A stretch of 64,000 nucleotides of DNA from the NCBI GenBank assembly GCA_036924285.1, contig JAYKYS010000008.1:19577001-19641000 (forward strand). Reading direction: 5' to 3'. This DNA comes from Asterella californica (lineage: Eukaryota; Streptophyta; Marchantiopsida; Marchantiales; Aytoniaceae). Positions 20,881 to 58,765 of this stretch are shown here, one piece after another. A program made the position numbers and the translations under genes. Under the pieces are notes generated by a model, which was given only the letters and a program-made list of their open reading frames with translations, did no database searches and was not told the origin of the DNA. Numbering within the stretch: the stretch's first letter is position 1; the number at the start of each line of letters is the position of its first letter.

Positions 20881-23800
20881 CTTTTTCAATTTTTGATAGA
20901 AGATGCTTGAAATGTAGAAGTTCGTAGAAGAAATAATGAAGTTAGAAGAAGAATAGCTTAGTTTTAGTGAAGAAGATAATTTGTGAAGAGAGGAGAGTTC
21001 TTAAGAAGACCTTCGTCGGAAGACCTCTGTAGAGAAAGAAGACTTCTTAAAGAGTAGTCTTCACGAGCAGTTAGTAGAATTTGCAGAAGGGTACACGGAG
21101 AAAGAATAAGTTAAGACAAGTTATCTTCCCGAAGAGAGACAGGAACCGCAAGAGACGAGGACAAAGAAGGTCTACGCACTCCCTTGTCAGACCTGTAGAG
21201 ATGAACGAGAGGTGAATTCGGCACGTGTGAGACGTTTGAAGCTAACTATATACTCAGAAAATCAGTTCATTATCCAAATCTGTTTTTATCGTGCAGTGGC
21301 TTTCTACTCTCGGAGAGCGTTTAGAAAAAGAGAGTGAATTCGGACGAAGTCTAGCGCATTTGGGCGAAGACTATCTCGGACGAAGTCTAGCGCATTTAGG
21401 CAAAGACTAACCCGCAGAGCGAATACAGTTATCTTCGTAGGGTACGATGTCAGTAACGTCAAAGTTACCGAGGATCAGAGCCTTTGAGTTGGACCAGGAG
21501 GAACTTCGTCACCTTCGGCTGAAGCTGAAGGAGTTAGGTTTAAGCTTCCTAACGTGGGGAGGTTAGACCCGGGTGTCTGACAAGTTCATCAGCAAGATTT
21601 GAATATGTGAAGATCATGCAGCCGAAGACGGATAGACAAGGTCAGAGAACTGGACAGTGGAGAATTGGACAAAGGTCTTGCTGGACGAAGCCGGCAAGAA
21701 AGAGGATATGCTCTTCGACCATTCGTCAATGAAGGCTTACGCGACTGAAGGAACAGACTATGAAAAACTCTTTGTTCAACCGATTCACCCAACGAATGAC
21801 TACAAGTTAGGCGAATATAAGGACCCGGTGAAGAGGAAGATCACCGAAGCGGTGATGCTGAGCCTAAGTCCTAGGAGGACCACCTACTTCTCAATGTGGA
21901 ACGTGTGTTTCTTCGAAAACATGTTCACGTGGAAGCTAGCACATTGCATGAAGATTTTCCATGACGAAGTGCAGCGCATGTGGACCAAGCAAGATTATGT
22001 TTATTTGGGCGGTTTTGTCTCCGTCTTCTACTTCGAAATGAGTTGGCTGAACGAGAGTGAGTAGAAGCAATTGGGATTTGGTCCAGACGAAGACGAAGAC
22101 ATCTAAGGAGAAGATCTTTCACCTGTTCGAGAAGAAGAAGAGAAGACACCGAGCGAAGGTGCACAGCCACAGGAGACTTCGCCAAAGGCTCCAGCGGAAG
22201 TCAGACAGGAGGGTGCTGAACCCGCGGTGGATGTACCAGTAGTCACGGGCGAAGACGAAGAGAAGCGCATGAATAAGAGGAAGAGAAGTCTTCTGACTAC
22301 GTCTCAGAAGAAGCCGAAGGCGAGGAAGAAGACCAAGAGCACGAAGAAGGAGACTATTGAGCTTAGCAGTTCGGAGGTCAAGATAGAGGGGGAGTCACTC
22401 TTCGGCGAAAGGACTTCGGAGGGGTCAGCACTTGACGATGTGGACATGTTTTGAAAGGCGATGCTCTTCGGCGATGAGGTGATAGTACCGGTGCTACGTC
22501 TTTTGGAGGAGAACTGGGCTAAGTATGGAAGAGGAGGCAAGGAAGAAGATGTCTCTAGCGGAGATGATTGTCTTTGTACACTTCACCCAAAGGGAACTGG
22601 CGAGAAGAGAAGAAAAATCTTCGCGAAGCGATCAGGAATGCGACTAAGTTGAGATTGGAAGCCGAGAAGGAGACCAAAGATCTGCGGCGCCAGTGTGACA
22701 AGTTGAAGACGACTGTGAAGACGTGCGAAGAGGAGCTTAAGGTGTCGACGAAGAGCTTCTCTGACCGACTTCAAGACTTAGCGAATCAGAATGCGGACTT
22801 GCAACTAGTCATGAACAATACCTGGTCACCATTGCTGAACTTACAAAGGAAAAGGAGGATTTGAAGATGAAGGTTGAAGAGTCTGAACACCTCCGAAAGA
22901 AGTTGGTGCTCGTGTTGTCTGCGTACACGACTTCAGGGTTGGACTCCGAAGAGCTTGGTCTTCTGCGAGCATTGAAGACGGAGACAGTGCAGGCGGACAC
23001 GAACTCTGACGGTGTGAAAGCGCGCCTTTCTAGACTTTGATAAAAAGTAGATAGGGAGATATGAGAGATACGAGTGAACGCGAAGGTGCAGTTAGAAGAG
23101 TTCATAGCACAGTTAGGCTTAGGATTATAGATTCGGTGAAGATGAAGATAGATCATAGGGTAGTGAAGGTCTTCCGCCTTCTTAAGAAAAAAAGCAGTTA
23201 GCCTTTTGAAGATGGACCTTTTTCCATGTTTTCAGTTCTTTATTAATTAATTTATATTTCTTAAAAGTGCGGAGCAAATCTTGTGAATGATTTGAGCGAA
23301 GACGATTTCTTCCGAATATTCAGACCTTGTTGTCGCAGGAGTAAATCTGAGTGACGAAGACCTTCGTAGGTAGACTTCGGCGAATAGTCTTCAGCGAAGA
23401 GCGGACTTGCGTAGTACGTGAATGAGAGATGAGGACGAAGATCTGAGAACAAATCAGTTACTGCGAAGGTGAAGAGAGTGAGTTAAATTGTAAGGAGAGT
23501 TTGGAAGATCGTTGCTTCTTCTTGAAGACTGGCTTCTTCAAATAAGAGTGGGTCTTTAAGACTTGAGAATTAGTTGGAAAAACACTTCTTAGAAAGAGTA
23601 GGGGCTTATTCTTGAAGCCTTAATGTGAAGTATGTGTTCTTCTGTCTTTTCGGAAGAAGATTAGTAACATTTCAGCAGTATTTTACATTCTTCATTCGTT
23701 CATATCTTTGTCTTCTCGAATCTTTTATCTGTGTTGTTGGAAGGGTCATTGATCAAGAACTATTTCATTGTTGTTTGTATTCAATTTGTCAGGTTGTGCT

Positions 23801-24085
23801 TGGGTTTGGTTTCTTATCAAACTTAAACTCTCATTTGGATATTATTCTATTCCATGAAATAACAGAAAACTTCTAGAATTACCATTGTGACGTTGTTGTG
23901 TTGTGATTTGTGTAATTGTTAACTGTATCTTCGTGGGAACGATCTTTAATTTATTATTTTTGATACATTTGGTTTCTCTGGTTTGTTACATGTCGATGTG
24001 TGTCGAGAGATTTAGAGTAAGCATTGGAGACATAGTTTCTCGGTTTTCTTGATTTGTCCAAGTGTATCTTTGCACGATAGCCTCT
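20880..24085 (+). mobile_element. Relic E: probable large-LTR segment with an internal ORF
   Basis: The segment is rich in GAAGA/TCTTC words like the B/C LTRs. It encodes a broken ORF homologous to the LTR-encoded ORF of C (see next feature) and carries GTGGGAACGAT near 23934, as the C LTR does near its 3' end. The LTR end may be TTTGTTACA at about 23990. No gag or pol was seen. The left boundary is approximate. Confidence 0.5.
21447..23040 (+). pseudogene. Diverged, broken homologue of the LTR-encoded coiled-coil ORF
   Basis: ATG 21447 opens with MSVTSKLP and then LKLKELGLSFLTW, closely matching LKELGLDFFLW of the C and B1 ORF near its Met start. After a TAG the reading continues in other frames: YKDPVKRK (YREPKKRL in C), then YVYLGGFVSVFYFEM (AYLGTPAGGHLTPFFCYLYVAM in C, shortened), a lysine/serine-rich linker with KRSLLTTSQKKPKARKK, and a heptad-like coiled coil around LRLEAEKETKDLRRQCDKL. 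Several stops and shifts exclude function. No known function can be assigned. The shared order (N-domain, charged linker, coiled coil) supports common descent with the C-type ORF. Confidence 0.6.
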
Positions 24086-24861
24086 TGTGGTGCCCACAAA
24101 TTACAGGGTTCACGAATTTTTGAAATTTTTAAGATTAATAACTTGTTTGTATAACTGAAGAAGCGTTGTTACTTAAGATTACGTCTTCCTTAGCAGGAAG
24201 ACGATCTTACGAACTTTTTGTAATAAGAAGTTGACTTCTTCGGAAGACGACCGTCTTCCGGGAAACGTCTTCTCGGCAGTGTCTTCAGAAGACGGAAGAC
24301 GGCGGAAGACACGCATCTTCCAGAAGACGGCAACCACGGAAGCTTAAACCTGGTAAAAGAGTGGGTGTACCTACTAGGTAACACCAAGGAGGTAGGTAGG
24401 TCAGGTAGGTCATCTAGGATCGAAACCCCTAAACTGTGGGGAAGATGCGCAGGAAGCGCATTAGCAGATTTCTGACTTCCTGCAGCAAGAGCGTTTCTTG
24501 ATTGAGAAGTTCGATTCGAGGGTGAGCCTTGAGTGAGGAGACAACGAGGTGAAATCGAGTGAGGATTAAGATCGATTCGAAACTAGCAAGAAGGCGAGAT
24601 CGAATTGCTGAAGCGCAGGAAGCATAGTAGGTGGAAGACGTTTTCTGTGAGCAACCGGAAGCTGACATTGGAGGGTGACTGAAGTGGAATCGAAGGTGGA
24701 ATTGAGGCATAGCCAGAAGCTGACAGCGGAAGCAGTCTTGTGAGGTCGCACTGGAGCTGGAACCCGAACCAGAAGCGCGTGGAAGATCAAAGATAGCTCG
24801 GGAAGTCAACAGAAGACAGTAGAGGTTCTCTCCCTTCCCCATTGCTTCTCGCCTTTGTTGG
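24086..24861 (+). repeat. LTR fragment B2 (first 776 bases of a large LTR)
   Basis: It starts TGTGGTGCCCACAAATTAC, like B1 and the 3' LTR of C. It follows the family sequence as far as a CTTCTCGCCTTT landmark and is then cut by B1 at 24862, so B1 landed inside B2. The sequence differs more from C than B1 does. Confidence 0.8.
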
Positions 24862-27800
24862 TGTGGTGCCCACAAATTACAGGATGCACGAATTTTTGAA
24901 ATTTTTAAGAATAATGACTTGTTTGTATAACTGAAGAAGCGTTGTTACTTAAGGTTACGTCTTCCTTAACAGGAAGATGATCTTAAGAGCTGTTTGTAAT
25001 AAGAAGTTGACTTCTTCAGAAGACGACCGTCTTCGGAAGATCGTCTTCTCAGTTGCGTCTTCAGAAGACGAGAAGACGGCGAAAGATGGGAAGACGGCGG
25101 AAGACACCTATCTTCCAGAAGACAGCGACCGCGAAGGACCAACCACGAGTTTTTGGGTAAGACAGTAGGTGTACCTACTGGAGCGCACCGAATACGTAGG
25201 TAGGTCAGGAAGACACCAAGGACGAGAACCTCTAATCTGCGGGGAAGATGTCTGAGGAAGCACATTAGACACCTTCCAACTTCCCGCAGCATAGCGCGCC
25301 TGAAGAAGATCGATTGAGAGAGTGAGCTTCGCGAGCTAGCATTGAGAGAGAAATCAAGTGAGACATCGAGGTAGGAGAGAGTAAGTTGGCAGCTAGGCGA
25401 AGGGTGAGATTGAATTGCGGGAGCACAAACAGCAGAGAAAGCGAAGGCGTTTCTGTGGAGCTTCCGAGAACCTGACAGTGAAGAGTGGCGAGTAGAAGCA
25501 AAGGTGAAATCAAGGTGTGGACCGAAATTGACAGCAGGCGCAGTCGTGTGGAGTCGCATTGGAAGCTAGGACAAGAGCCAGAAGCGCACGGAGGTCGAAG
25601 GCAACTCGGGGAGCCGTAGAAGACTGTAGAGGTTCTTCCCCCTGTTCTTTTCCCCTCCCACTTCTTCTCGCCTTTTCTTGATACTCCCCGCGCTTCCTTG
25701 ATTGTGTGCAGGCAGCCTGATCGATTACCCCACCCCCATTCTTTCTATTGAGACATTGGGCGCGGAAGCGCTGCCCAATTTCTGTCGAGACATCTCCTTG
25801 CTTCTTCCCGAGCTCAATTTGAGCTTCCCTACTCCTAGCCCTCAAATTGGAGACCCCAACTATCAATTTCCCTACCCCCCTACCTCTCTATCCCCGAAAC
25901 TTGGAACATAAGACGATTCCGAAGATGGGAACATCTTCGGAAGACGCTTCTTGAACTTGATTGTCTTCGGAAGTCGACTGAACACAATTCGTATCAAGAG
26001 TGGATTTGCTTTGCTTTTGTGTTTAGAGAGGCTTGGTACGAATCCTGAGTGGAGTGGTGAGTTGTTGTGTTAATTTGAGAAGTTGGAAGTCGGGAACTAG
26101 GCCTGTGCCTCCCGGTCTTCCAAGCTTCTCAACTCCCCATCTTCCTAGAGAGACTAGAAGACTGGAAGGCTGGCAAAATGAGCGAGAAGACGCGAGGGTC
26201 CATTCGGGTCTCTTCTGTTCGATCCATAGCAGCCGTTCCTTCTTCTTCCCGAACTTAGAAGAGAGTTGTGAGAAGTCTTGCTGGCAGAATCTGGAGGGAA
26301 TGGTTGAGGGTCATGTCTTCCCATCATGCAGCAAGCTTCTTCTGAGTGCGTATGAGAGGTGAGAAGTCAGAAGAACAGAGTGTAGTGTCTTGAGTCTGTT
26401 GTGAGGATAGATTGCGTGTAGGAAGACGAAGACAGGTGAGACCAGTGAAGGGAAGTCTGACTTCGAGAAGTCTTCCGAGAACGACATTGAATCGGAAGCT
26501 GTCCCAAGTGTCTTCCCAGAGGCCACTGTCACCGCAGGAGCCCGCAACCATCTTCTGAACCTTTCTCATACTCTACTTCTCGCATATCTTGTATCTTCTG
26601 ATAGGAAGTAGGATGTAATGCAAGGTGGGTTGTCTTCTTGGTAATCCATGCGAGGCCTTGCTTAGATAGGATTGTTTAGATATAGCTCGGAAGACGAGAG
26701 CTATCTAGGAAGTACTGTTAGAATCCCGGAAGACGGAGTAGCTGTCTTCTGGAAGACTAGTTTCGTCTTCTGAGAAGTATAAGCTAGACTGTGGGCACTC
26801 GGGAAGAACTGAGCCTTCAGCTCATAGTAGGTGCTTGTGGTTTAGTGCAACAGATCTTCCAGGTATGTCGATGCATCCGCGAGGCTTGGTGTTACCCACG
26901 GCAGAATTGGCCGAGGCCACTCCTTTCCTCAAGGACTTGGGTCTCGACTTCTTCCTGTGGGATTGGAACCTCGCAGATCAAGGGCTTCTGGAGGAGGTGT
27001 GGGCCGCGTTACCACCGCGTAACCGTGTACCTGCGAAGGCAGGAGTAGCTCGGGGAAGACCGTCTTCCTGGACTGAAGACTGATGACGTAAGGCGTTTCA
27101 CAGGCTTGAGACCGAGAACCGAGGATATTGGTACGAGAAGAAGATCTTGCCTAGGATTGTGAGTTCATGGCATGTGCCTGGGAGTACCACCTGCCTTTTC
27201 GTGGAAGACAGGCAGGGGAGGAACGGTTGGAAGATAGAGTCTTACCGGGAGCCGAAGAAGCGATTTCTGGCGAAGTTGTTTCTGCATCTTTTCCCCAAGG
27301 GAAAAGCGCAGAAGACAAGGTACTTAGGAGATCAGGACGTGGAGTTCCTGGAATCAGTGTGGGATGACAGAGTGTCAATCTACTAGGGCGCGTACATCCA
27401 CACTATGTACAGACGGAGCTAGCATACTTGGGTACCCCGGCGGGAGGACATCTGACGCCCTTCTTCTGCTACTTGTATGTAGCCATGGGGGATCTTAGGG
27501 AAGATCAGCTGGCAGTATATGGGCCAACGGAACGACAGGAGGTGAAGGAGGAGACCTCGGAAGACGATGACCGAGAGGCAGCAGCAACGCCCCCTCCCAC
27601 TCTGATGCCACAGCTGAGGCCCGGCTCTCACCAGAAGACGCTTCTGGTGAGAGAAGATGAGTCTAGTGGGTAGGAAGACGCCACGCCAGTGAGGAAGATG
27701 AGTCACAGAAGTGTACCGAGGACACTCATCTCCCTCATTCATTCAAGATCGGAGTCGGACTCGGAGGAAGACTGGCTGAGTACCCGATCGGAGCAGAAGA

Positions 27801-29801
27801 CAGCTTCTGTAACACCTGGGAGTCTTCCGAAGACTCCAGAAGACGAAGGATGGATGGGCGCTCCTACTGCGATGCGAGGAAGCGCAAAGAGGAGAGCCGC
27901 TCCTGCCACGAGGAGTCTTCCATCCCGGAAGATGAGAAGAATAGCTTCTTCTCGTGCGCAGAAGATGAAGATCGTAGTGGTGGAAGAGGCTTCCTTGCCT
28001 CTGGAAGACGAAGTCGACACCATGGAGCGAGTGGTGGAAATGAACTTGTCTTCCGCAGGAAGACAACTGGAGGAGTTCAGTGCCTACTTCCAGAAGGAGA
28101 TCCAGCCCGCTATGGAGTTGCTGGAAAGGAGAGCGAGGGCACAGGAGAAGCCCTTACAGCCTAGATTCGGCCTGCGTACCTTGCTGCGACAGGAAGACAG
28201 CCAGCAGAAGACGGAGTCGCTGGAAGCTAGTCTCCGCACCACGGAGAAGCTTGCAGCCAGGTACAAGGCGGAAGCAGCTGCTTCTGCCAAGGAATCAATG
28301 CAACTTCGGAAGAGCAACCAGGAGTTGTAGGCGCGAGTACAGCAGCGCGATCAAGAAGTTCTCCGAGTGCGGGAGAAGATCACTGCCCTCGCAGAAGAGC
28401 AGACCACTTGGAAGATGCAGCGAGAAGCCGCAGAAGCACGAGCTGCAATGGAGAAGACGCAGAGGGAAGCAGCGGAGGCCCGTGCGCAGAAGATGCTAGC
28501 TCAGTCGGTAGAAGCGCTTCGGAAGAAGTTCAACTTCACCGCGGGTAAGAAGTTACTTACCTTAGCTAGGGAATGGGACAGCGGGTCCAAGACGAGGTTG
28601 GTGGAATGCAAAGATAGCATGTTCAGGTACCTGGATAGACAGATAGAAGGAGTGAAGACACTTTATGGTCTTCCCTCACTTCCGACACCTGCAACTGCAT
28701 CTTCCCAAGCCCCAGCACCCTCGACTGGATCCGGAATGGAGAAGGAGGAGTTTGATCTCGCTGTACACTTGGTGGTGACAGCGTTGGAAGACGAGAAGAC
28801 TCCAAAAGACGCCCCGGAAGACATGATGTCTTCTGGAAGACAGGAAGACGAGCCGTCTTCCCAGGTATTCCGCGTGGAGGAAGCGACTTCCCCGGACCCC
28901 TATGAGGTCGCCATGGTCCCTAGTACTGCACCGGTGCCTCAGAAGACCGAAGACGCACCATTCGACTCGTCTTCCCAGAAGACCATTCCGTCTTCCGAAG
29001 TCGAAGCCGAGGAAGACGCAGTCGCAGAAACAGCAGGGCCAGCGAAGAGCGAGGAGAGGGAAGCTACCTCAGTGGTACCCGAGGTAAGTGCAGGGCTTCC
29101 CAACCCATCAGAAGTCGAGGTAGTAGCTCCGGTAAGAGCAGATCATGAAGAGATTGCCACCGAGCAATCAGAGTAGTTAGCAAACTTAATCGACACTTCC
29201 AGATTTAGTAGGATCGGACATGCTATCTTAAGGGTGGCAGTTTTCCATGTAAAAATAGTTAGGACTCCATGTGGCAGCATAGGTAGCGTAGGAGTAACAC
29301 AGTGGAGGGTTAATTGGGAAGAGGGACCGCATGCATGTGAGGTGACAACCTCTTGTCAGCGCCTCTCTCTCTCTCCCTGGTGGTCGTCTCCCCTGACTCT
29401 CGAGGCAGATGGTTAAGTAGGATCGTAGAGTAGGAAATGGAGCTCTACCAGTTCTGCCAGTTCTGTAGGATTCTGTAGTAACTGAACATACACACCGATT
29501 CTACAGGCAGGCAGGCGAGACACATTAGAGCAGAGACAGTCTTAGCGCACTACACCCGTCGTTGGAAACATACGAATAGTCTTGGAATATACAAGAGGGG
29601 TCTGCATACTCGCACCAGCAGTGGTTCGAAGATGTAGATAGAAGTAGTGGACAGTCTAGGAACAGGGAACGGCATCCTCGTGCAGTCCTGTTAGCTAGGC
29701 TGGTGTGTCGAGGAGTAGACGCAAGAAGTAGCGGGAGTGAGCTTCCCAATGCCATTGTGACTTCTTCTCGAGGAATAGATTGTGGATTTGAGTGCAGCTG
29801 C
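24862..29801 (+). repeat. LTR B1, interrupted by element C
   Basis: The full-length start TGTGGTGCCC is present and the sequence follows the 5850-bp C LTR for 4940 bases in the opposite orientation. It then stops at GAGTGCAGCTGC, where C begins with TGTAGTGACGAAGG. The missing last 1 kb should lie beyond the other end of C, outside the window. The LTR contains the long ORF described next. It has dense GTCTTC/GAAGAC arrays in its first kilobase. Confidence 0.85.
26865..29176 (+). pseudogene. LTR-encoded coiled-coil ORF, B1 copy
   Basis: The ORF spans about 770 codons in the sense direction of the LTR. It begins MSMHPRGLVLP, then an N-terminal region with LKDLGLDFFLW, SSWHVPGSTTCLF, LFLHLFPKG and GGHLTPFFCYLYVAMG. 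An acidic and Ser/Thr-rich linker (SESDSEED) and a basic patch (KRRAAPATRSLPSRKMRR) follow. Then comes a coiled coil of roughly 200 residues rich in E, A, Q, K, R, and an acidic tail ending ATEQSE. Unlike C, no frameshift is present near the GWMGAP segment. Breaks are two adjacent TGA codons where C has two Trp codons (near 27081), TAG at 27382-27384 (shared with C), and TAG at 28328 (Gln in C). No family was recognised, and there is no signal peptide or membrane segment. Confidence 0.7.
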
Positions 29802-32800
29802 TGTAGTGACGAAGGATTTCTCCTTTTGCCCATTTAGTATACAAGATATCATTCCCACAGAGGATTTGCACAAGTAACGCTGCTCTAAGTTCTAAGATCT
29901 GTTCAAACACACAAACACACAGGTTTTGCCTAGAAATCCCGTCTTCTCACAAAACCACACAAAACAACACGTCTTCCAGACACGCCAAATGGTGCTCTGG
30001 ACCCAAACAAACAACTACCAATTACAATATCATACAACTATTCACAGGGAAGCTCGGGAAGACGATCTTCCTGCTTCCAGGTTGCTGCTTCCGGTCTTCT
30101 CGATACCGTCTTCTCGAAGCGATTCTCGTCTTCTGGGGGTTTAGCTCGTCTTCTCACACCTCCAGAAGGCTGTCCGGCTTCGCAGAAGTCGACTAGTAAC
30201 AGTCGTTACACCTTATTCCCACACTCACATTCCAACGGGTTAGATCAATCACAGGGTGTATGCCCCCTGTAGCCTTCCCAGGCTTCTGCCTACGGAAGTT
30301 GTCTTCCTGCAGCACTACAACGACATTCACCTTCACGGAAGCTCAATAGAAGTATCGGAAGCTCACTAGAAGAAGGTAAGAAGATGGGGAAGATGGGAGA
30401 AGATGGGAAGAAGAAGAAATCCAAACAAGAGAAAACAGGATGAAAAAGGGCAATTAAGATTCCGACAGGCTTCTAGTCCGGATCCTGACTAACAAGCCAT
30501 CCCTGCTTGTAATAGTTTGGGGAGGAAGACAACAAACGTGAGTACTGTAGCACCGTCTTCTACTCGAGGATGTCGTCTTCTGTTGCGGGAAGAAGGCTTC
30601 TTTCTTCTTCACTTCGCTGCTCTGACTGCTCTGTCTTCTGGGATCACTTACCCAGAAGACCGTTCGTACGTAGATCCCAAGTGCTCTACTGAACGAGTCA
30701 AGCTACACTCCACAACTGTTGACATTCACCGCCACTCAAGAAGAACACTTCCCATGCACAATTGGGAGCGAATTCAATACATTCCACCACCCAGAAGACA
30801 TGGACAAAGCTGCTGCACTCAAATCCACAATCTATTCCCCGAGAAGAAGTCACAATGGCATTGGGAAGCTCACTCCCTCTACTTCCTGCGTCTACTCCTC
30901 GACACACCAGTCTAATCAGCAGGTCTGCACGAGGACGCCGTTCCCTGTTCCTAGACTGTCCCTGCTCTAATGTGTCTCTCCTGCCTGCCTGTAGAATCGG
31001 TGTGTATGTTCAGTTACTGCCGAATTCTACAGACCTGGCAGAGCTCTCAGAGAGCTTTTCTCCTACCATGCTATCCTACTTAACCATCTGCCTTGGGAGG
31101 CGACCACCAGGGAGAGAGAGAGAGGCGCTGACAAGAGGTTGTCACCTCACATGCATGCGGTCCCTCTTCCCAATTAGCCCTCCACTGTATTACTCCTATG
31201 CTACCTATGCTGCCACATGGGGTCCTAACTATTTTTACAAGGAAAACTGCCACCCTTAAGATAGCATGTCCAATCCTACTAAATCTGGAAGTGTCGATTA
31301 AGTTTGCTAACTACTCTGATTGCTCGGTGGCAATCTCCACATGATCTGCTCCTACCGAAGCTACTACCTCGACTTCTGATGGGTTGGGAAGCCCTGCACT
31401 TACCTCGGGTACCACTGAGGTAGCTTCCCTCTCCTCGCTCTTCGCTGGCCCTGCTATTTCTGCGGCTGCGTCTTCCTCGGCTTCGACTTCGGAAGATGGA
31501 ATGGTCTTCTGGGAAGACGAGTCGAATGGTGCGTCTTCGGTCTTCTGAGACACAGATGCAGTACTAGGGACCATGGCGATCTCATAGGGGTCCGGGGAAG
31601 TCGCTTCCTCCACGCGGAATACCTGGGAAGACGGCTCGTCTTCCTGTCTTCCAGAAGACATCATGTCTTCCGGGGCGTCTTCTAGAGTCTTCTCGTCTTC
31701 CAACGCTGTCACCACCAAGTGTACAGCGAGATCGAACTCCTCCTTCTCCATTCCGGATCCAGTCGAGGGTGCTGGGGCTTGGGAAGATGCGGTTGCAGGT
31801 GTCGGAAGTGAGGGAAGACCATAAAGTGTCTTCACTCCTTCTATCTGTCTATCCAGGTACCTGAACATGCTATCTCTGCATTCCACCAACCTCGTCTTGG
31901 ACTCGCTGTCCCATTCCCTAGCTACGGTAAGTAACTTCTTACCCGCGGTGAAGTTGAACTTCTTCCGAAGCGCTTCTACCGACTGAGCTAGCATCTTCTG
32001 CGCACGGGCCTCCGCTGCTTCCCTCTGCGTCTTCTCTGTTGCAGCTCGCGCTTCTGCGGCTTCTCGCTGCATCTTCCAAGTGGTCTGCTCTTCTGCGAGG
32101 GCAGTGATCTTCTCCCGTACTCGGAGAACTTCCTGATCACGCTGCTGTACTCGCGTCTGCAACTCCTGGTTGCTCTTCCGAAGTTGCATCGACTCCTTGG
32201 CAGAAGCGGCTGCTTCCGCCTTGTACCTGGCTGCAAGCTTCTCCGTGGTGCGGAGACTAGCTTCCAGAGACTCCGTCTTCTGCTGGCTGTCTTCCTGTCG
32301 CAGCAAGGTGCGCAGGCCGAATCCAGGTTGTAAAGACTTCTCCTGTGCCCTCGCTTTTCTTTCCAGCAACTCCATAGCGGGCTGGATCTCCTTCTGGAAG
32401 TAGGCACTGAACTCCTCCAGTCGTCTTCCTGCAGAAGACAAGTTCATCCCCACCACTCGCTCGATGGTGTCGAATTCGTCTTCCAGAGGCAAGGGAGCCT
32501 CTTCCACCACTACGGCCTTCATCTTCTGCGCACGAGAAGAACCTACTCTTCTCATCTTCCGGGGTGGAAGACTCCTCGTGGCAGGAGCGGCTCTCCTCTT
32601 TGCGCTTCCTCGCATCGCAGTAGGAGTGCCCATCCATCCTTCGTCTTTGGAGTCTTCGGAAGACTTCCAGGTGTTACAGAAGCTGTCTTCTGCTCCGATC
32701 GGGTACTCAGCAAGTCTTCCTCCGAGTCCGACTCCGATCCTGAATGGATGAGGGAGATGGGTGTCCTCGGTACACTTCTGTGACCCATCTTCCTCACTGG

Positions 32801-35651
32801 CGTGGCGTCTTCCGACCCACTAGACTCGTCTTCCCTCACCAGAAGCGTCTTTTGGTGAGAGCCGGGCCTCAGCTGTGGCATCAGAGTGGGAGGGGGCGTT
32901 GCTGCTGCCTCTCGGTCATCGTCTTCCGAGGTCTCCTCCTTCACCTCCTGTCGCTCCGTTGGCCCATATACTGCCAGCTGATCTTCCCTAAGATCCCCCA
33001 TGGCTACATACAAGTAGCAGAAGAAGGGCGTCAGATGTCCTCCCGCCGGGGTACCCAAGTATGCTAGCTCCGTCTGTACATAGTTGTGGATGTACGCGCC
33101 CTAGTAGATTGGCACTCTGTCATCCCACACTGATTCCAGGAACTCCACGTCCTGATCTCCTAAGTACCTCGTCTTCTGCGCTTTTCCCTTGGGGAAAAGA
33201 TGCAGAAACAACTTCGCCAGGAGTCGCTTCTTCGGCTCCCGGTAAGATTCTATCTTCCAACCGTTCCTCCCCTGCCTGTCTTCCACGAAAAGGCAGGTGG
33301 TACTCCCAGGCACATGCCATGAACTCACAATCCTAGGCAAGATCTTCTTCTCGTACCAATATCCTCGGTTCTCGGTCTCAGGCCTGTGAAACGCCTTACG
33401 CCACCAGTCTTCTGTCCAGGAAGATGGTCTTCCCCGAGCGACTCCTGCCTTCGCAGGTACACGGTTATGCGGTGGTAACGCGGCCCATACCTCCTCCAGA
33501 AGCCCTTGATCTACGAGGTTCCAGTTCCACAGGAAGAAGTCGAGACCCAACTCCTTGAGGAAAGGAGTGGCCTCGGCCAATTCTATCGCTGGTAATACCA
33601 AGCCTCGCGGATGCATCGACATACCTGGAAGATCTGTTGCACTAAACCACAAGCACCTACTATGAGCTGAAGGCTCAGTCCTTCCCGAGTGCCCACAGTC
33701 TAGCTTCCACTCTCAGAAGACGAAACTAGTCTTCCAGAAGACAGCTACTCCGTCTTCCGGGATTCTAACAGTGCTTCCTAGATAGCTCTCGTCTTCCGAG
33801 CTATATCTAAACAATCCTATCTAAGCAAGGCCTCGCATGGATTACCAAGAAGACAACCCACCTTGCATTACATCCTACTTCCTATCAGAAGATACAAGAT
33901 ATGCGAGAAGTAGAGTATGAGAAAGGTTCAGAAGATGGTTGCGGGCTCCTGCGGTGACAGTGGCCTCTGGGAAGACACTTGGGATAGCTTCCGATTCAAT
34001 GTCTTTCTCGGAAGACTTCTCGAAGTCAGACTTCCCTTCACTGGTCTAACCTGTCTTCGTCTTCCTACGCGCAGTCTATCCTCACAACAGACTCAAAACA
34101 TGTGCACTCTGTTCTTCTGACTTCTCACCTCTCATACGCACTCAGAAGAAGTTTGCTGCATGATGGGAAGACATGACCCTCGACCATTCTCTCCGGATTC
34201 TGCCAGCAATACTTCTCACAACTCTCTTCTAAGTTCGGGAAGAAGAAGGAACGGCTGCTATGGGTCGGACAGAAGAGACCCGAAATGGACCCTCACGTCT
34301 TCTCGCTCATTTTGTCAGCCTTTCAATCTTCTAGTCTCTCTAGGAAGATGTGGAGTTGAGAAGCTTGGAAGACCGGGAGGCACAGGCCTAGTTCCCGAGT
34401 TCCAACTTCTCGAAATAACACAACAACTCACCACACCACTCAGGCTTCGTATCAAGTCTCTCTAAACACAAAAGCAAAGCAAATCCACTCTTGATACGAA
34501 TTGTGTTCAGTCGACTTCCGAAGACAGTCTTCCGAAGATGTCTTCCGAAGACAGTCAAGTTCAAGAAGCGTCTTCCGAGGATGTTCCCATCTTCCGAATC
34601 GTCTTCTATTTCAAGTTTCGGGGGTAGAGAGGTAGTAGAGTAGAGAAATTGATAGTTGGGTTCGCCAATTTGAAGACTAGGGGTAGGGAAGCTCGAATTG
34701 AGCTCGGGAAGAAGCAAGGAGATATCTTGACAGAAATTGGGCAGCGCTTCCGCGCCCAATGTCTCAATAGGAAAGATGGGGGGTGGGGTAATCGATCAGG
34801 CTGCCTGCACACAATCAAGGAAGCGCGGGAGTACCAGGCAATGACGAGAAGAAGTGGGAAGGGGAAAGAACAGGGGAAAGAACCTCTACAGCCTTCTTCG
34901 GCTCCCGAGTTGCCTTCGACCTCCGCGCGCTTCTGGCTCTTGTCCTAGCTTCCAATGCGACTCCTCTCGAATGCGCCTGCTGTCAATTTCGGTCCACACC
35001 TCGATTCTTCTTTCGCTTCTACTCGCCCCTCTCCACTGTCAACTTCTCGGAAGCTCCACAGAAATGCCTTCGTTCTTTTCTGCTGTTCGTGCTCCCGCAA
35101 TCCGATTTCACCCTTCGCCTAGCTGCCAACGTACTCTCTACTACCTCGATGTCTTACTCGATTCCTCTCTCAATGCTAGCTCGAAGTTCACTCTCTCAAT
35201 CGATCTTCTTCAGGCGCACTGTGCTGCGGGAAGTTGGAAGGTGGCTAATGTGCTTCCTCACGCATCTTCCCCGCAGATTAGGGGTTCTCGTCCTTGGTGT
35301 CTTCCTGACCTACCTACCTATTCGGTGCGCTCCAGTAGGTACACCTACTTGTTTACCCGAAAACTCGTGGTCAGGCCTTCGTGATCACTGTCTTCCGGAA
35401 GACAGGTGTCTTCCGCCGTCTTCCCATCTTCCGCCGTCTTCCTATCTTCTGAAGACGCAACTGAGAAGACGGTCTTCCGAAGACGGTCGCCTTCTGAAGA
35501 AGTCAACTTCTTATTACAAACAGCTCTTAAGATCATCTTCCTGTTAAGGAAGACGTAACCTTAAGTAACAACGCTTCTTCAGTTATATAAACAAGTCATT
35601 AATCTCAAAAATTTCAAAAATTCGTGAATACTGTAATTTGTGGGCACCACA
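29802..35651 (-). repeat. 3' LTR of C, 5850 bp
   Basis: Read on the minus strand it begins TGTGGTGCCC at 35651 and ends CCTTCGTCACTACA at 29802. The same sequence runs from 51116 rightward, and this copy is uninterrupted, so it shows the empty site of A (TACGGCC at about 32513). By eye the two LTRs differ by roughly 1-2 percent in the first kilobase. The region 29802-31310 (LTR 3' part) and 33653-35651 (LTR 5' part) hold no convincing ORF. Confidence 0.88.
31311..33622 (-). pseudogene. LTR-encoded coiled-coil ORF, 3' LTR copy of C
   Basis: It is the same protein as in B1 and lies about 2.0 to 4.3 kb into the LTR. Met at 33622 matches the start seen in E and B1. The N-terminal part runs to a TAG at 33101-33103 after DDRVPIY. 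The same frame continues through GAYIHNY and GGHLTPFFCYLYVAMG to a one-base deletion near 32648 (relative to B1). The last 440 codons are open in the next frame and include the coiled coil (KLAARYKAEAAASAKES, EEQTTWKMQREAAEARAA) and the ATEQSE tail. Both the TAG and the deletion occur in both LTRs of C, so they existed before C inserted. Confidence 0.72.
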
Positions 35652-35666
35652 TACGCCCACCCTCAC
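35652..35666 (-). other. Polypurine tract of C
   Basis: On the minus strand GTGAGGGTGGGCGTA lies directly before the 3' LTR start TGTGG, the expected place for plus-strand priming. Confidence 0.6.
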
Positions 35667-35709: not shown

Positions 35710-36533
35710 TTACGTCCAGTACTTCTTGACGCGCCACCCATTAACACGAGTGGTCATCAGTGTACCATCCAACTCTTCCAACTGCAAAGAGCCATTGTCG
35801 AAGACCTCTAAGACACGGTAAGGTCCCATCCAGCGAAGATGAAGTTTCCCGGGGAACTTAATATTACGGTTGTCGTAGAGGAGTACCAAGTCCCCGTCCA
35901 CAACAGTCACCTTCCTCAACTTGCTATCGTAGTTTACCTTACGTTGCGCTTGCACCTCGTATGTCTTCTCCAAAGCTGCATTCTTGTCTTCTTCAAACTC
36001 TACGAAGTTCAGAAGACGCTGCTCCTGGCTCTCTTCTTCTCCCATGAGTTCGGATACGGCTAACCGGTATGTTGGGACCTCTAACTCAATGGGCACAATG
36101 GGCGTCATGCCGTAAGTTAGGTAGAAAGGCGTCTTCTGGGTAGTGACCTTAGGTGAAATTCTGAAAGCCCACAACACAGATGGTAATTTCGTGTCCCAGT
36201 CATACGCATGGTTAACAGTTACCTTGTTCAGGATGTTACACAGAAGACCGTTTGACTTCTCCGTCAGCCCATTAGCTTTCGGGTTGTATGGCGTCGTCTT
36301 CCGATGCTTAATCCTGAAGTATTGGGTCAGGAGGGAGATAGTCTCATTTAAGAAATGAGTGCCCCTATCTGACACCAATTCCAGCGGACATCCATACCTA
36401 GTGATGATGTTATGCCATAGGAACCTTGCTACTACTGCGGCATCGTTCTTTCTCGTGGCCTCGCCCTCCACCATCTTGGTGGCATAGTCGGTACCTATTA
36501 AGATGTACCTTGCTCGTGTTCTTCTCGCCACGG
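35710..36533 (-). pseudogene. C integrase, C-terminal two thirds
   Basis: After a one-base shift near 36533 the integrase core continues with ARYILIGTDYATKMVE, LVSDRGTHF (second catalytic Asp) and NGLTEKSNG (catalytic Glu). The C-terminal GPY/F-like module (RWMGPYRVLEVFDNGSLQL) follows, ending KKYW and stop. Integrase inserts the cDNA into the host chromosome. All three catalytic residues are present if the shift is ignored. No chromodomain is seen at the C-terminus. Confidence 0.85.
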
Positions 36534-38558
36534 GGCGATAGGTCCTACAAAGTCGATCCTCCACTTTTCGAACGGGGCAAGCGGAAGAATGGCAGTAAGA
36601 GGCCACCTTGTTGTAGCGGTCGGTCTTCCCACCCTCTGGCATGCATCGCACTTCCTGATCTCCTGGAAAGTGTCTCGGTACATAGTTGGCCACCAGTATC
36701 CGGCGTCTAGCATCTTCTTCACTGTGGTCGTCAATCCGTAGTGACCCCCAGCATCTTTGTAGTGAAGACTTGTGATCACTGCTTTTATCTCTGACGGCTC
36801 GAGACATCTTCTCAGCTTCTCGTCATGTCCCTTTTGAAACAGGATACCCTGGAAGATAGCATATGGACCTGCCTTGTGTAAGAAGACGGCCTTCTGCTCC
36901 GCATCCATTCCCTCGGGGTACTGTTGGTCTTCCAAGAACCTTCTCAAGTCCTTGAAGATCGACTCTTCTGTGGAAGTCGCGAAGACTAGGTCAGAAGATC
37001 TAGTCTCGTCTTCTGGGAAGCAGGCGGTACGCAACCCCTCAGATGAAAGTGTCTCTGCGAAAACTGAAAACAACTTCTCGTCAGGAAACTCGTCTTCCAC
37101 TTCATCTTCTCGTCGTTCTGTCTCCAACCTGGATAGGTAGTCAGCGTTAACATGCTGTCTTCCGGGCCTGTACTCAACTGTGTAAGTAAATTCCTGGAGT
37201 AGGAGAATCCACCTAGCTATCCTGTCAGACAAATCTGCTTTCTTTACAAGATGTTTCAAAGAGAAGTGATCTACATAGAAGACAAACGGGTTTGCCAGAA
37301 GATAGTGTCTAAACTTCCTACAGGAGTAAATCATGCCAAGACACTCTCTTTCGGTTGTCGAGTACTTCTTCTCTGCATCACTGAGTTGTCTTCCCGCGTA
37401 GTAGATGGGGTAATCCTTCTTCTTCTCATCTTTCTGACTCAACACCACCCCGATGGCAAAAGCAGAAACATCCACATAAATGTGGAAGACCCTTTTCCAA
37501 TCAGGCGGCCGTAGGACAGGGGATTCCGACAGAAGCCTCTTCATTTCTTCGAATGCTTCCTGCTGCTCAGAAGACCAAATGTATGGTTCGTCTTTCTTCA
37601 GCAACTTAGTGAGTCTTCCTGCTACCTCTGCGTACCTGTCAATAAACCTCTTGTAGTATCCTACGTTGCCAAGGAAGCTTCTCAACTGTGTCAGGTTAGC
37701 AGGTGGGTGGAGTTTCATGATGACTTCCACCTTAGCACAGTCGACTTCTATACCTCTTCCGGAAATCCTATGTCCTAGCAAGATCCCCTCTGACATACCA
37801 AAGAAGCATTTCTCAGGGTGAAGTGCCAAACGATGTTCTCTACACTTCAGAAAACACTTCCTCAGAAATATCAAGTGGTCTTCTCTCGATCCAAACACAC
37901 AGAAATCATCCAAGAAAATCTCCATAAAGGTGCGAAGATACTCCTTGAAGATTGTAATCATCAACCTCTGGAACGTGGCTGGTGCGTTGCATAAACCAAA
38001 CGGCATTTGATTATACGCGTACGTGCCCCAATCAGTAGTGAAAGTGGTTTTCGACTTGTCTTCTTCTATGATTGAAACTTGGTTGTACCCAGAATACCCA
38101 TCTAGGAAGCTGTAGAACTCATGTCCTGCTACCTGGTCTAACACAGAGTCGGTGAATGGTAAAGGGTGATGATCCTTTTTCGTGGCCAAGTTCAACTTCC
38201 GGAAGTCCTGACACACTCGGATCTTCCCTGTCTGTTTCTTCGGCACGATGACAATGGGAGCTACCCATTCACTGCTAAGTACTGGGAAGATGACTCCTGC
38301 CTTCAGGTATTGGTCAATCTGGTCCTTCACCAGAAGCGAGTACTTGGGGTTGAGCCGGTACTGCCTCTGCCGTGCAGGAACAACGCCTTCTAGCAAGTCG
38401 CTGCGATGCTCTCCCAATTCTCGAGGTATGCCCTTCATGTCTTCTATGGTCCACGCGAAGACATCCTGGAACTCTGTCAGAAGTTCTCGAAAGTCTTCCA
38501 ACTGCTGGCCCTCGATCACCTTGGAAAGCTTCAGCTTCTTCCCAGGAGCAACCTCCAT
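36498..38558 (-). pseudogene. C reverse transcriptase, RNase H and integrase N-terminus
   Basis: The frame of 686 codons begins MEVAPGKKLKLSK, one codon after a TAA that separates it from the protease part. RT boxes are KIRVCQDFRKLN, SFLDGYSGYNQ, MPFGLCNAPATFQ and FLDDFCVFG (catalytic Asp pair). RNase H has YVDVSAFAIG, ERECLGMIYSCRKFRHYLL and VNADYLSRLE. The integrase HHCC region (HYKDAGGHYG .. CDACQ) and first core Asp (WRIDFVGPI) follow, then the frame is lost. RT copies the genomic RNA and RNase H degrades it. The arrangement is that of Ty3/Gypsy, RT before integrase. Confidence 0.9.
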
Positions 38559-40331: not shown

Positions 40332-41244
40332 TGTAACGACCTATGTTACACATAGGAAGTTTGTCTATTAGTAAGGTGTTTAGTTATAACTAAGTGTTGA
40401 GAATGTTTATTGGCTGCCAAAGTACTTTAAGGATGTATCAAGTTAGTCATGACTAGCTAAAAGTTAGTTATGGTTAAACTTAGCTGTACTTTTGGCAGAA
40501 TTCAGATATTTGCTAAAGAGTGAGCACTACTATCTTGTCATCTTGTCTAAAAGGTAGAAAGGAGGTGGAAAGTATCCCTTATCTCCTTTTTGACTTGATA
40601 TTAGTGGTTGGATTAAAGTTGTGGACTTTGTGGACATTAAAAACAAGAAGAGATTCCACATGTTTCCTTTTTAGTGGGTCCTAGTGTAGAGGGGGGGTGG
40701 AAATTAGAGATTCCTTGAGAATATTCCAGAATCCTTCTAGAAGTTGTTGACTTTGAAGGAATAAGCCCATGTGAAAAGGTAAAAAGCCCATGTGATCAAT
40801 GCTTTTACCTTAAGTAATATCTTAGTAAAACCCGGTAAAAATAGTTACGGCTGAGTTACCGGGGGTACCAAAGTAAAAACCTAGAATGTATAAATAGAGG
40901 AGTAGAGAAGAGCTCCTCATCCTTGTTTTCACATTGTCGTAATGACAACTTGAGTAATATAGAGAGTGTGGGATATTTTTAGCATGTGAGAACTTGAGAG
41001 ACGTCGTTAGAATGGAGGATTTTAGTTAAGGTGTTTAAGGAGATTTTTAGTTGATAAGTTTGTGGGTGTATGAATGAGTGAACTCAGCATTTTCCTTTCA
41101 AGTTCATGGTGTGCTTCCATCAAAGCCATCAGAGGTGACCCCTGAGTGAGAGACAGGCCCGACATGTTGCAGATTCGTGGATGACGATCGTGGAGGTTGA
41201 GAGATCGGGGGGTAGTTGATCGATAGGACCGCGGAGGGTTTACA
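40332..41244 (+). repeat. 5' LTR of D, 913 bp
   Basis: It matches 48170-49083 along its whole length. It contains a clear TATA box and, downstream, GAGCTCCTCATCC before the probable transcription start. Confidence 0.92.
40889..40897 (+). promoter_or_regulatory. TATA box of the D LTR (second copy 48727-48735)
   Basis: TATAAATAG is present in both LTRs about 560 bases from the LTR start. It is a canonical plant TATA element, and transcription would start some 30 bases downstream. Confidence 0.7.
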
Positions 41245-41248
41245 TTTT

Positions 41249-41265
41249 TGGTTCCGTTGCCGGGA
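41249..41265 (+). promoter_or_regulatory. Primer binding site of D
   Basis: TGGTTCCGTTGCCGGGA, 4 bases after the LTR, resembles the tRNA-Asp-type site TGGCGCCGTTGCCGGGG of plant Gypsy elements with two differing bases near its start. Confidence 0.75.
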
Positions 41266-41547
41266 CCTCACTTGAAGGGATCGTTGAACGATGTTTAGAG
41301 TTCAGTTCTATATTCGACAAAAGGAGATTATGAGAGAGCACATGGAGAGAACGTTGGGAGGAGAGAGAGCTAACGCGATGTTAGCAACGTTAGAACCTTT
41401 CGTGTATCCCGTAGTGATATATGACGCGTTCGAAGTCATTCTTTACATCTTGTTCACTTAGAAAGGGTTTGAGGAGAGTTGAAAGAGGGTGCAACAAGAG
41501 TTGTAGAGAAAGGAGGAGAGAAAAGTTATTAGAGGAGATAAATTTGT

Positions 41548-42030
41548 GAGTATAGAAATTCTGCTCTCTGGAAAATTTGTACAGTCGCTGTCAACTTTTC
41601 TGTGAATTTTATTTTCCTGTGAAACTTTACAGTGTTTTAGATTGGCTGATAACCTATCTAAGACAAAAGAAATCATAGGAAAAGGTGGTCTAGAGAGGAA
41701 GCAATGAATTTTCAAAGTTGAGGGGGTCTATTCATGAGAGTTGAGGAATTCTGTTATCTGAAAAAAATTTACAGTCATTGTCAGATTTTCTGTGAATTTT
41801 ATTTTCCTGAGAAACTTTCCAGTGTTTTAGAGTGGCCAATAAGCTATCCAGGACAAAAGAAATCATGAGAAGATGAGGTCTGAAGAGAGAGAAAGAATTT
41901 TTCAAAGTGGAGGGGGTTGACAACCATGAGGGAAGTGAAAATATACAAATTTCAGTTCTCTGAAAATTTGTACAGTCATCACCATCTCTTCTGATTAGGG
42001 AAGTTTCTGTTGAAACTTCATGATTTAGTA
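41548..42030 (+). repeat. Tandem repeat of about 190 bp in the D leader
   Basis: Two full units (starting near 41555 and 41746) and a partial third (near 41946) share GAATTCTG..CTCTGAAAATTTGTACAGTC and GTGAATTTTATTTTCCTG. Units differ by about 10-15 percent. They lie between primer site and first ORF, where packaging signals are expected. Confidence 0.8.
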
Positions 42031-42132
42031 GCTTGGAGGTTGAGCTACTGGAGACCACAAAAATCTTGGAGAGATCTCTTACCAATTAAGAGATATACGT
42101 TTCGGCATACAAGGAGGTCTTGAAGATACTTC

Positions 42133-42450
42133 ATGGGGAATCCAGTTCGAATGACGAGGTGGAAGAAGAGACGTTTAGGAGTTCGAACTGAGACGGAGAA
42201 GCCGAAGTTAAGTATAGATGAGTTACGAACCCGCATCTATAGCACTTGGGGTGCCCTCTTTACCCTATACGAAGAAGCTTCCGCGACCATTGGCACAGAT
42301 TTGAAGAAAGCCGAGTTTAAAGCATCATTCACGGTGGAGGCCACGAATGCTCCTGGTGAAGTAGAGTTGGATCCTTACAAGAGTGAGTTCAAGATGTCTG
42401 TTGTGATTAGTACAAACGATGGTGAGGAGGATCATATCTTCGATAGTTAA
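42133..42450 (+). CDS. Small ORF upstream of D gag, unknown
   Basis: The 105 codons start with ATG after the leader repeats. The product begins with a basic stretch (RMTRWKKRRLGVR) and has an otherwise mixed, acidic body ending DGEEDHIFDS. I recognise no family. It may be an independent accessory ORF or the remnant of a longer N-terminal Gag part that was shifted out of frame. Confidence 0.4.
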   Translation: MGNPVRMTRWKKRRLGVRTETEKPKLSIDELRTRIYSTWGALFTLYEEASATIGTDLKKAEFKASFTVEATNAPGEVELDPYKSEFKMSVVISTNDGEEDHIFDS

Positions 42451-42581
42451 TTAGATTTTATTTCGTGTATAGCATGTGTAATACACGATTTCCAGTATAA
42501 AGCTCGGAAGAGTTAAGAAAGTGATGTAGAATTATTTTCCTCTATGATATTTTGTCCACTTAATGGTTGAGAAGGTGCAAC

Positions 42582-43058
42582 ATGAGTGGAAATTCAAAAG
42601 ATTGGAAAGTTAGACTTAGAAACCTTCCTCAAGGTTTAGATGTCATAGTAAGTGTCGAAGAAAGTTCGAGAGAGATTATCGTCGAGTTTGAAAACCCTAG
42701 TACTAAACCTCACGTAGAATCTCCGAGGAGAAGAGTAGAAACCGACTTGTGGTGTTATTTCTGTAGAGGGTTGGGACACAAAGTCGTGAATTGTCCAACT
42801 AGAATCAGAACCGAGAGAGCTAAAGGGAAGCGGGAGTTTACTGATTTAAGTCTTCGAGTGGGTCCATCGTCACCAGCGCCAATTCATCTTCTAGGCGAAG
42901 ATCCTTGTCCAAGTTGTGGAGTGGGTGATCTATCAAGAGGACACAAGTGCGTCGATGTGGCCGCTCTACTTACGTCAGTAGTCGATAAGTTGGACGAGAC
43001 TCAAAGAGCTGAGACGGAGAAGTTGTCGACTTCAAAAGAGAACTCGGCTGAGTTGTGA
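42582..43058 (+). CDS. Zinc-knuckle ORF upstream of D gag
   Basis: From ATG 42582 the 158-residue product carries a CCHC knuckle, CYFCRGLGHKVVNC, at about residue 57-70. A second Cys/His cluster, CPSCGVGDLSRGHKC, lies near residue 109-123. It lies in a frame different from both the preceding ORF and gag. Gag itself has its own knuckle near the C-terminus, so this is an extra nucleic-acid-binding module. It may be an accessory protein of the element, or a shuffled gag piece. Confidence 0.5.
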   Translation: MSGNSKDWKVRLRNLPQGLDVIVSVEESSREIIVEFENPSTKPHVESPRRRVETDLWCYFCRGLGHKVVNCPTRIRTERAKGKREFTDLSLRVGPSSPAPIHLLGEDPCPSCGVGDLSRGHKCVDVAALLTSVVDKLDETQRAETEKLSTSKENSAEL

Positions 43059-43270
43059 TGGAGATCGTCATTCGGATGGTGGAGAAGGCGGTGATGCGAC
43101 TCAGGCTCATGATTACCTTGGGAGAAGAGATGGCACAAGAGGTGTTGTTACAACCGTTTCCTTTTATTTTACCTATGGTAGATTATTCGCGAATGGAATT
43201 GGTGATGTTCGTGCTCTTTTAGCGAGTAGTTATTGCACGAAAATTGGAAGTGTAGAAGAGTAGTTACAAG

Positions 43271-48156: not shown

Positions 48157-48157
48157 T

Positions 48158-58764: not shown

Positions 58765-58765
58765 T

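What the first reader, a model, noticed from the sequence alone, without database searches (positions are those of the whole stretch)
29802..35651. Giant LTRs (5.85 kb) that encode a long sense-strand protein
The sequence from 35651 down to 29802 recurs from 51116 rightward. It is bounded on one side by a purine tract and on the other by a tRNA-Asp-type primer site, so it is the LTR of C. Inside, about 2.0 to 4.3 kb from the LTR start, lies a sense ORF of roughly 770 codons with a compact N-terminal region, a charged linker and a 200-residue coiled coil. B1 and E carry homologues. A Gypsy LTR normally has no protein gene. The nearest known parallel is the superantigen gene in the LTR of mouse mammary tumour virus, which is unrelated. 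Placing a gene in an LTR doubles it at every insertion and leaves it in every solo LTR, so the protein could be supplied by solo LTRs. Function is unknown.
Basis: partly seen in the sequence, partly recalled or inferred. Interest (0 to 1): 0.87.

Follow-up and report, generated by a model that had tools for sequence, protein, structure and literature searches.

The report
Protein gene inside retrotransposon end repeats
In this plant genome, families of Gypsy-type jumping genes carry a conserved protein gene inside their long end repeats, and their DNA is crowded with a short motif that varies between families, which suggests that the protein may recognise its own element.

Summary
A sense ORF of 770 codons lies 2.03-4.34 kb into the LTR. 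C's and B1's own copies are broken, but 22 of 96 scored family matches lie in a stop-free frame.

A second family (E; 553 aa in a 3,162-bp LTR) and very probably a third (G; 592 aa) carry homologues in the LTR. The ORF is under purifying selection (dN/dS 0.15 in E, 0.26 in C; about 1 or more in shifted frames). B1 and the window's E copy are solo LTRs that still hold the decayed gene.

I infer a nuclear coiled-coil factor that reads its own element's DNA, as VANC does for VANDAL transposons. Binding and expression are untested. Eight literature searches showed no LTR-resident gene in a plant retrotransposon.

The parts
29802..35651 (-). 3' LTR of element C, 5,850 bp, TGTGGTGCCC...CACTACA
31311..33622 (-). 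LTR gene in the 3' LTR (770 codons in open family copies; here broken by one stop and one frameshift)
51116..53829 (-). 5' LTR of C, gag-side part
62536..64000 (-). 5' LTR of C, outer part; continues to 65678 outside the window
53830..62538 (+). Unrelated nested LTR element F (1,373-bp LTRs) inserted into the LTR gene of C's 5' LTR; control element without the motif
49310..50734 (-). gag of C (Retrotrans_gag)
36498..38558 (-). reverse transcriptase, RNase H and integrase zinc-binding domain of C
35710..36807 (-). integrase core of C; no chromodomain match
51078..51096 (-). primer-binding site TGGCGCCGCTGCCGAGGAT (tRNA-Asp type by recall)
35652..35666 (-). purine-rich tract GTGAGGGTGGGCGTA next to the 3' LTR
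40332..49083 (+). Unrelated nested LTR element D (LTRs of about 913 bp) in C's internal region; control element without the motif
24862..29801 (+). B1, solo LTR of the C family (TSD GTTGG), interrupted by C; continues beyond the window to 66690
26775..29176 (+). decayed LTR gene in B1
24086..24861 (+). start of an older LTR (about 73% identical to C's LTR start) into which B1 inserted
20870..23990 (+). E-family solo LTR, TSD TGTCG on both sides
21447..22064 (+). 5' part of the decayed LTR gene in the E solo LTR (start codon at 21447; stop-free piece 21636-22064)
21247..21252 (+). TATA box P1 (TATATA) of the E solo LTR, 200 bp before the start codon

Best explanation
The LTRs of this lineage of Gypsy elements contain a real protein gene. 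SHOWN: its place in the LTR of families C and E, open frames in many copies, purifying selection, homology C-E and E-G, retention in solo LTRs, two conserved TATA boxes around the gene in E, and a GAAG-core motif, differing between families, dispersed over both strands. INFERRED: the gene lies in U3. TATA box P1 drives a separate mRNA for the LTR protein; P2, just after the gene, drives the gag-pol genomic RNA, in which the gene then lies between pol and the 3' R region, where other elements keep env-like or accessory genes. The protein (N-terminal domain, acidic stretch, basic NLS-like patch, coiled coil) enters the nucleus, oligomerises and binds the motif arrays of its own family to keep that DNA open and transcribed: an anti-silencing or trans-activating self-recognition factor, as VANC is for VANDAL. 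Being in the LTR, the gene is doubled at every insertion and stays in every solo LTR as a potential donor in trans.
For: Gene in LTR. Open frames (best-scoring matches only): 22 of 96 in C, 52 of 150 in E, 17 of 150 in G, hand counts. Selection: dN/dS 0.095-0.180 in 29 of 29 E loci, pooled 0.152; shifted frames 1.19 and 1.54 over 10 loci, C versus L077 0.264 against 1.02 and 1.11. P1 exact in 28 of 29 alignable E loci, P2 in 20 of 20 alignable, of 30 loci; the P2 word also follows the gene in G. Basic patch and coiled coil. Motif: 316 against 57.5 expected; 0 of 500 synonymous shuffles in six ORFs of C, E and G; five control ORFs show no excess of GAAGAC; antisense strand enriched in 4 of 5 ORFs; sites preserved in 71% against 50-56% for permuted 4-mers.
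Against: No binding, expression, localisation or methylation data. No known DNA-binding domain; the models of the N-terminal domain are weak. C has no TATAWA word near or downstream of its gene. The end of E pol is near control density (12-22 GAAG per kb in four loci), so in E the motif may be confined to the LTR and leader. The motif split is not absolute: in L064 GAAGAC is also enriched (18 against 3.6), and in the window's E solo LTR it is as frequent as CGAAGA (23 and 22). Sense copies outnumber antisense ones in coding DNA (26:7 in the C gene) and are unevenly spread over frames in the E gene (11, 5, 1). Control ORFs show a mild GAAG excess (z 1.2-2.2). Only two control elements and one flank were compared. 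dS is above 1 in many E rows, so those ratios are rough.
Confidence: 0.42

Rival explanations
1. The LTR gene is an accessory gene from the env position (RNA export, particle assembly, movement) that became part of U3 when the polypurine tract shifted upstream. It does not read the motif, which is bound by a host factor such as a transcriptional activator.
For: Its place between pol and the 3' end of the inferred genomic RNA is that of sense extra ORFs (PMC7264820, parts 1-2 read). No DNA-binding domain was recognised.
Against: The motif extension differs between the three families, as do their proteins, and two neighbouring elements in the same genome lack it; a single host factor would not need that.
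Confidence: 0.25
2. The motif acts in RNA (a purine-rich splicing, export or packaging signal), read by the LTR protein or by host SR-type proteins.
For: GAAGA is a classical purine-rich splicing-enhancer word (recalled). Sense copies outnumber antisense ones in coding DNA and in C's internal region (40:19).
Against: In C's 5' noncoding LTR the strands are balanced (16:15), in E noncoding 8:6. Antisense copies exceed synonymous shuffles in 4 of 5 ORFs.
Confidence: 0.15
3. The LTR protein does bind its own element's motif, but as a repressor or copy-number control that limits further insertions.
For: Same motif and architecture evidence; supply from solo LTRs would suit dose-dependent control. 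Self-limiting proteins exist in other retrotransposons (recalled).
Against: Families C and E are young and numerous (3,426 C-type LTR starts; 152 E PBS junctions; near-identical E copies), which does not suggest strong self-repression. No direct evidence either way.
Confidence: 0.12
4. The ORF is a chance or fossil frame without function.
For: C's and B1's own copies are broken; many open E copies are near-identical and thus simply recent.
Against: dN/dS well below 1 over diverged loci and about 1 or more in shifted frames; E and G align over 590 residues at 28% identity; conserved start codon and TATA boxes.
Confidence: 0.02

Closest known systems
Extra ORFs (aORF/eORF) of plant LTR retrotransposons: Grande gene23, RIRE2, Retand ORF4 (TRP28), Ogre (plant mobile domain), Athila ORF1 (PMC7264820, PMC6317226, PMC11963269)
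   Same: Conserved non-gag-pol protein of unknown function in Gypsy elements; some are reported nuclear or possibly DNA-binding.
   Different: The papers as read place them in the internal region (mostly between pol and the 3' LTR, often antisense). Here the gene is sense and inside the LTR. No match to PMD, TRP28 or Athila ORF1 at E up to 10 in hmmscan.
Superantigen gene (sag) of mouse mammary tumour virus (PMC3026287, passages)
   Same: A protein gene that lengthens the LTR; present in both LTRs.
   Different: Animal retrovirus with 1.3-kb LTRs; immune function; no detectable relation in hmmscan.
VANC proteins of VANDAL (MULE) DNA transposons of Arabidopsis (PMC5735166 passages, PMC10398659 abstract)
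   Same: Element-encoded factor family whose short target motif is accumulated in the element and differs between related families.
   Different: DNA transposon; motif in noncoding tandem repeats, shown to be bound. Here an LTR retrotransposon, motif dispersed and also within coding sequence, binding unproven, no sequence relation seen.
Retrosat2, RIRE3, RIRE8 and FRetro3 with ORF0 (PMC3485330, passages and outline)
   Same: LTR elements with LTRs of about 3 kb and an extra ORF of unknown function.
   Different: ORF0 is described as upstream of gag-pol and is treated apart from the LTR.

Membership tests
Ty3/Gypsy LTR retrotransposon | TG...CA ends, direct LTRs, 5-bp TSD | tested here: met
   TSD perfect for the E element, E solo and B1, 4 of 5 bases for C
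Ty3/Gypsy LTR retrotransposon | PBS after the 5' LTR and purine tract before the 3' LTR | tested here: met
Ty3/Gypsy LTR retrotransposon | gag and RT-RNase H-integrase order in pol | tested here: met
   the protease match is below Pfam's cut-off
Chromovirus (Gypsy) | chromodomain after integrase | tested here: not met
   no chromodomain hit at E up to 1
Tat branch (Ogre, Retand) | additional RNase H domain | tested here: not met
   no second RNase H hit in the RT-integrase frame at E up to 1; no RT tree was made
Known plant eORF families (plant mobile domain, Transposase_28, Athila ORF-1) | match to PF10536, PF04195 or PF03078 | tested here: not met
   none listed for E, C or G proteins at E up to 10; HMMER filters may hide remote matches
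MMTV-type LTR gene (topology only) | protein gene wholly inside the LTR, in U3 | tested here: inconclusive
   inside the LTR: met; in U3: inferred from the P2 TATA box, transcription start not testable here
VANC-like self-recognition system | short motif accumulated in the element and differing between related families | tested here: met
   the split between families is not absolute
VANC-like self-recognition system | element-encoded protein binds that motif | not testable with these tools
   no binding data
VANC-like self-recognition system | protein removes silencing marks from the element | not testable with these tools
   no methylation or expression data
VANC-like self-recognition system | homology to VANC proteins | not tested
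   no VANC sequence was compared

The most novel reading that the evidence does not exclude
An LTR-retrotransposon counterpart of VANC: a gene carried in U3 with its own promoter encodes a protein that reads a DNA code (GAAG core with family-specific flanks) written over the element, in C also through gag and pol, and solo LTRs act as stand-alone suppliers in trans.
Probability: 0.33. Interest if true: 0.93.

Novelty: new variant of a known kind. Interest (0 to 1): 0.84.

Why it matters
LTRs are treated as noncoding control regions and solo LTRs as inert remains. Here an LTR holds a selected protein gene, in E between two conserved TATA boxes, so a solo LTR can be a protein-coding locus that annotation would misread. 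If the protein reads the GAAG-core motif, this is an LTR-retrotransposon self-recognition or anti-silencing system with a visible code in related families, so that coevolution of protein and target can be tested directly. The motif also points to DNA-level selection acting through coding sequence.

Tried and rejected
Chance or fossil ORF: rejected by dN/dS with shifted-frame controls. LTR ORF as a copy of gag: best match to four gag-region ORFs of the window is E 0.02. Shared stop of C and B1 as programmed read-through: dropped, since the frame is open there in other copies. Known domain: nothing beyond weak matches, mostly in the coiled coil; no protein of the 5.8-billion set at E up to 0.001 in three searches, each of which scored the nearly 8,000 candidates sharing most words; how many plant proteins that set holds I do not know. 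Two-promoter anatomy in C: not found.

Mistakes caught: the pooled dN/dS of eight open C copies printed is wrong (one row mis-registered); redone (0.49). The heading 'pooled over 29 loci' covers 10 loci. An earlier count gave C's TSD as perfect and C's end as 65679; one search shows one mismatch and 65678.

Full report
WHERE. A plant host is inferred from a glyoxal-oxidase-like gene in one frame at 16347-18290 and from the PBS type (recalled); the species was not identified.

THE LTR. Self-comparison gives 29802-32515 = 51116-53829 and 32509-33974 = 62536-64000; a nested element splits the right copy. Sequence beyond the window shows the right copy ending in the terminus at 65678. The 5-bp flanks are GCTGC and GCAGC, one mismatch; C's own LTR shows the uninterrupted form of the site. 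The LTRs differ at 43 of 4,180 compared positions, so C is young. The internal region carries gag, a weak protease match, RT, RNase H and integrase on the minus strand, with no chromodomain hit.

SOLO LTRS. B1 runs from 24862 to 66690 around C's insertion and is flanked by GTTGG. The E copy 20870-23990 is flanked by TGTCG. Both are solo LTRs with a decayed gene. Genome-wide there are 3,426 C-type LTR starts (21 bases, up to 1 mismatch), 1,044 with the C purine tract in front (30 bases, up to 3 mismatches) and 434 C PBS junctions (33 bases, up to 3 mismatches). Two LTRs per purine-tract junction leaves about 1,340 unpaired starts; the thresholds differ and the start word is shared with an older subfamily, so this only indicates many solo or truncated LTRs.

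THE GENE. In open C copies the frame runs 770 codons from the first ATG. Of the 20 loci fetched (of 41 matches), 8 are open throughout. Of 96 scored matches to the C-terminal part, 22 lie in a stop-free 800-codon frame; in E 52 of 150 in a 574-codon frame; in G 17 of 150 in a 636-codon frame. These are hand counts over best-scoring matches out of 11,752, 2,191 and 2,068 first-look candidates, not genome-wide rates.

IN THE LTR IN THREE FAMILIES. One E element, C2:6310171-6323209, was read at its ends: LTRs of 3,162 bp, TSD GGCAC on both sides, PBS after the 5' LTR, LTR ends identical where compared (90 of 90 and 333 of 333 bases), integrase right before the 3' LTR, the gene starting 567 bp into the LTR. 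The 150 E matches hold 27 same-strand pairs 8.5-11.5 kb apart, 25 of them between 9,727 and 9,893 bp, against 0, 0, 1, 0 and 2 in five 3-kb control bins; G holds 10 such pairs, 9 of them between 9,899 and 10,078 bp, against 3, 1, 0, 0 and 0. Using the 100 listed of 152 PBS junctions, 34 E and 19 G match-junction pairs lie 0.5-5 kb apart in the right order. G's LTR ends were not read, so for G the place is strongly indicated, not shown. E and C share 26% identity over the N-terminal domain (E 2e-12); G and E align over 590 residues at 28% (E 5e-67); G against C gave no match at E up to 1, so that link runs through E.

SELECTION. Against L064, dN/dS is 0.095-0.180 in 29 of 29 E loci, pooled 0.152; dS exceeds 1 in many rows, so single ratios are rough. 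Over 10 of these loci the true frame gives 0.144, the shifted frames 1.19 and 1.54. In C, a copy of 88% identity gives 0.264 (shifted frames 1.02 and 1.11), B1 0.286, and two short pieces of a 74-78% identical C-like LTR 0.20 and 0.22 on 31 and 43 codons. Among the 20 close C copies the pooled ratio is 0.48; changes in a single copy give 0.69, those shared by two or more 0.35, as expected if copies decay after insertion while the spreading lineage is constrained.

PROMOTERS. In E, TATATA (P1) is exact in 28 of 29 alignable loci, about 200 bp before the start codon, with no ATG between in L064; GTATATAA (P2) is exact in 20 of 20 alignable loci, about 110 bp after the stop codon; 30 loci were examined, the rest not alignable there. 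G has the same P2 word after its gene. In the six loci compared, divergence is lowest downstream of P2, as expected at a U3/R border. I infer a U3 gene with its own promoter; no transcript was seen, and C lacks such TATA boxes.

PROTEIN. C and E share the order N-terminal domain, acidic stretch, basic patch, coiled-coil-like stretch; G aligns with E throughout. Common to the three are RP..WT, LF.......N..K...Y..P.KR and YWA...H..VQ. No known family was recognised, and the two models are weak.

THE MOTIF. GAAGAC occurs 316 times in the window against 57.5 expected, with 0 of 100 shuffles reaching it. It is concentrated in C-family DNA: 78 in the C LTR (6.5 expected) and 59 in C's internal region (7.5); element D has 4 (7.9), F 7 (6.6), the left 20.9 kb 19 (15.8). 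E (L064) favours CGAAGA, 38 against 4.2, and G CGAAGT, 23 against 2.0. The split is not absolute: GAAGAC is also enriched in L064 (18 against 3.6) and equals CGAAGA in the window's E solo LTR (23 and 22). The GAAG core runs at 43-45 per kb in the C and E LTRs and the G piece, 38 in C's internal region and 14-17 in the controls; four E pol ends have 12-22. Counts exceed synonymous-codon shuffles in C gene (GAAGAC 34 against 12.5), C RT (18 against 4.8), C gag (12 against 2.8), C integrase (9 against 2.8), E gene (CGAAGA 24 against 6.1) and G gene (CGAAG 36 against 13.6), each 0 of 500; five control ORFs show no excess of GAAGAC but a mild one of GAAG, z 1.2-2.2. Strand by strand, sense copies are in excess in 5 of 5 ORFs and antisense copies in 4 of 5, C gag failing. 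In noncoding LTR the strands are nearly balanced (16:15 and 10:4 in C, 8:6 in E), in coding DNA sense copies prevail; sense copies fall in all frames of the C gene (8, 7, 11) but unevenly in the E gene (1, 5, 11). GAAG sites of L064 are kept in 71% of comparisons with 15 E loci, against 50-56% for five permuted 4-mers; in C versus L077 82% against 41-73%. In 2-kb bins the core marks the LTR-gene elements off from their neighbours and nested insertions.

MECHANISM. Gene real: shown. In the LTR: shown for C and E. Own promoter: inferred. Nuclear coiled-coil protein: inferred from sequence. Motif under selection: supported by shuffles and preservation. Protein reads motif: inferred from co-occurrence in three families against two control elements. 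Effect is anti-silencing or activation: by analogy with VANC (PMC5735166, passages; PMC10398659, abstract). Likely origin: a sense gene between pol and the purine tract became part of U3 when a new tract arose upstream of it; inference.

LITERATURE. Seen: PMC7264820 (parts 1 and 2 of 3), passages of PMC6317226, PMC11963269, PMC3026287 and PMC5735166, passages and outline of PMC3485330, abstract and outline of PMC10398659, one irrelevant passage of PMC2774666. Of ten searches, eight aimed at extra or LTR-located ORFs, one at VANC, one at retrotransposon anti-silencing. Their listings gave MMTV and other animal-retrovirus cases but no LTR-resident gene of a plant retrotransposon. Many subscription papers are not held and not every listed paper was opened, so this is no proof of absence.

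Noticed in passing
G000 C1:37553162, 37565703, 37578173 and C43:6772512, 6782388, 6792264: Runs of three LTR genes at even spacing (about 12.5 kb in C, 9,876 bp in E), as if LTR-internal-LTR-internal-LTR arrays share LTRs.
   Followed up: no
L064:742-3423 against L063, L066, L053, L057, L048, L069: Third codon positions of the LTR gene diverge faster than the noncoding LTR (for example 0.23 against about 0.1 upstream), and the stretch downstream of P2 is the most conserved. Unexplained: constraint on the LTR, or exchange between copies.
   Followed up: partly
E and G families: E and G share a near-identical PBS leader although their LTR proteins are only 28% identical, which suggests exchange of LTR modules or fast change of the LTR protein.
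   Followed up: no
L074, L075 (C2:6310020-6323400): The E element is inserted into the gene of a C-like LTR (74-78% identical pieces on both sides).
   Followed up: partly
window 16347-18290, minus strand: Glyoxal-oxidase-like gene in a single 647-codon frame, next to the retrotransposon nest.
   Followed up: no
window 39432-40292, minus strand: 287-codon frame between gag and protease of C without Pfam match.
   Followed up: no
window 53826-53829 and 62539-62542: Nested element F is flanked by ACGG on both sides, a 4-bp duplication, unlike the 5-bp ones of the LTR-gene elements.
   Followed up: no
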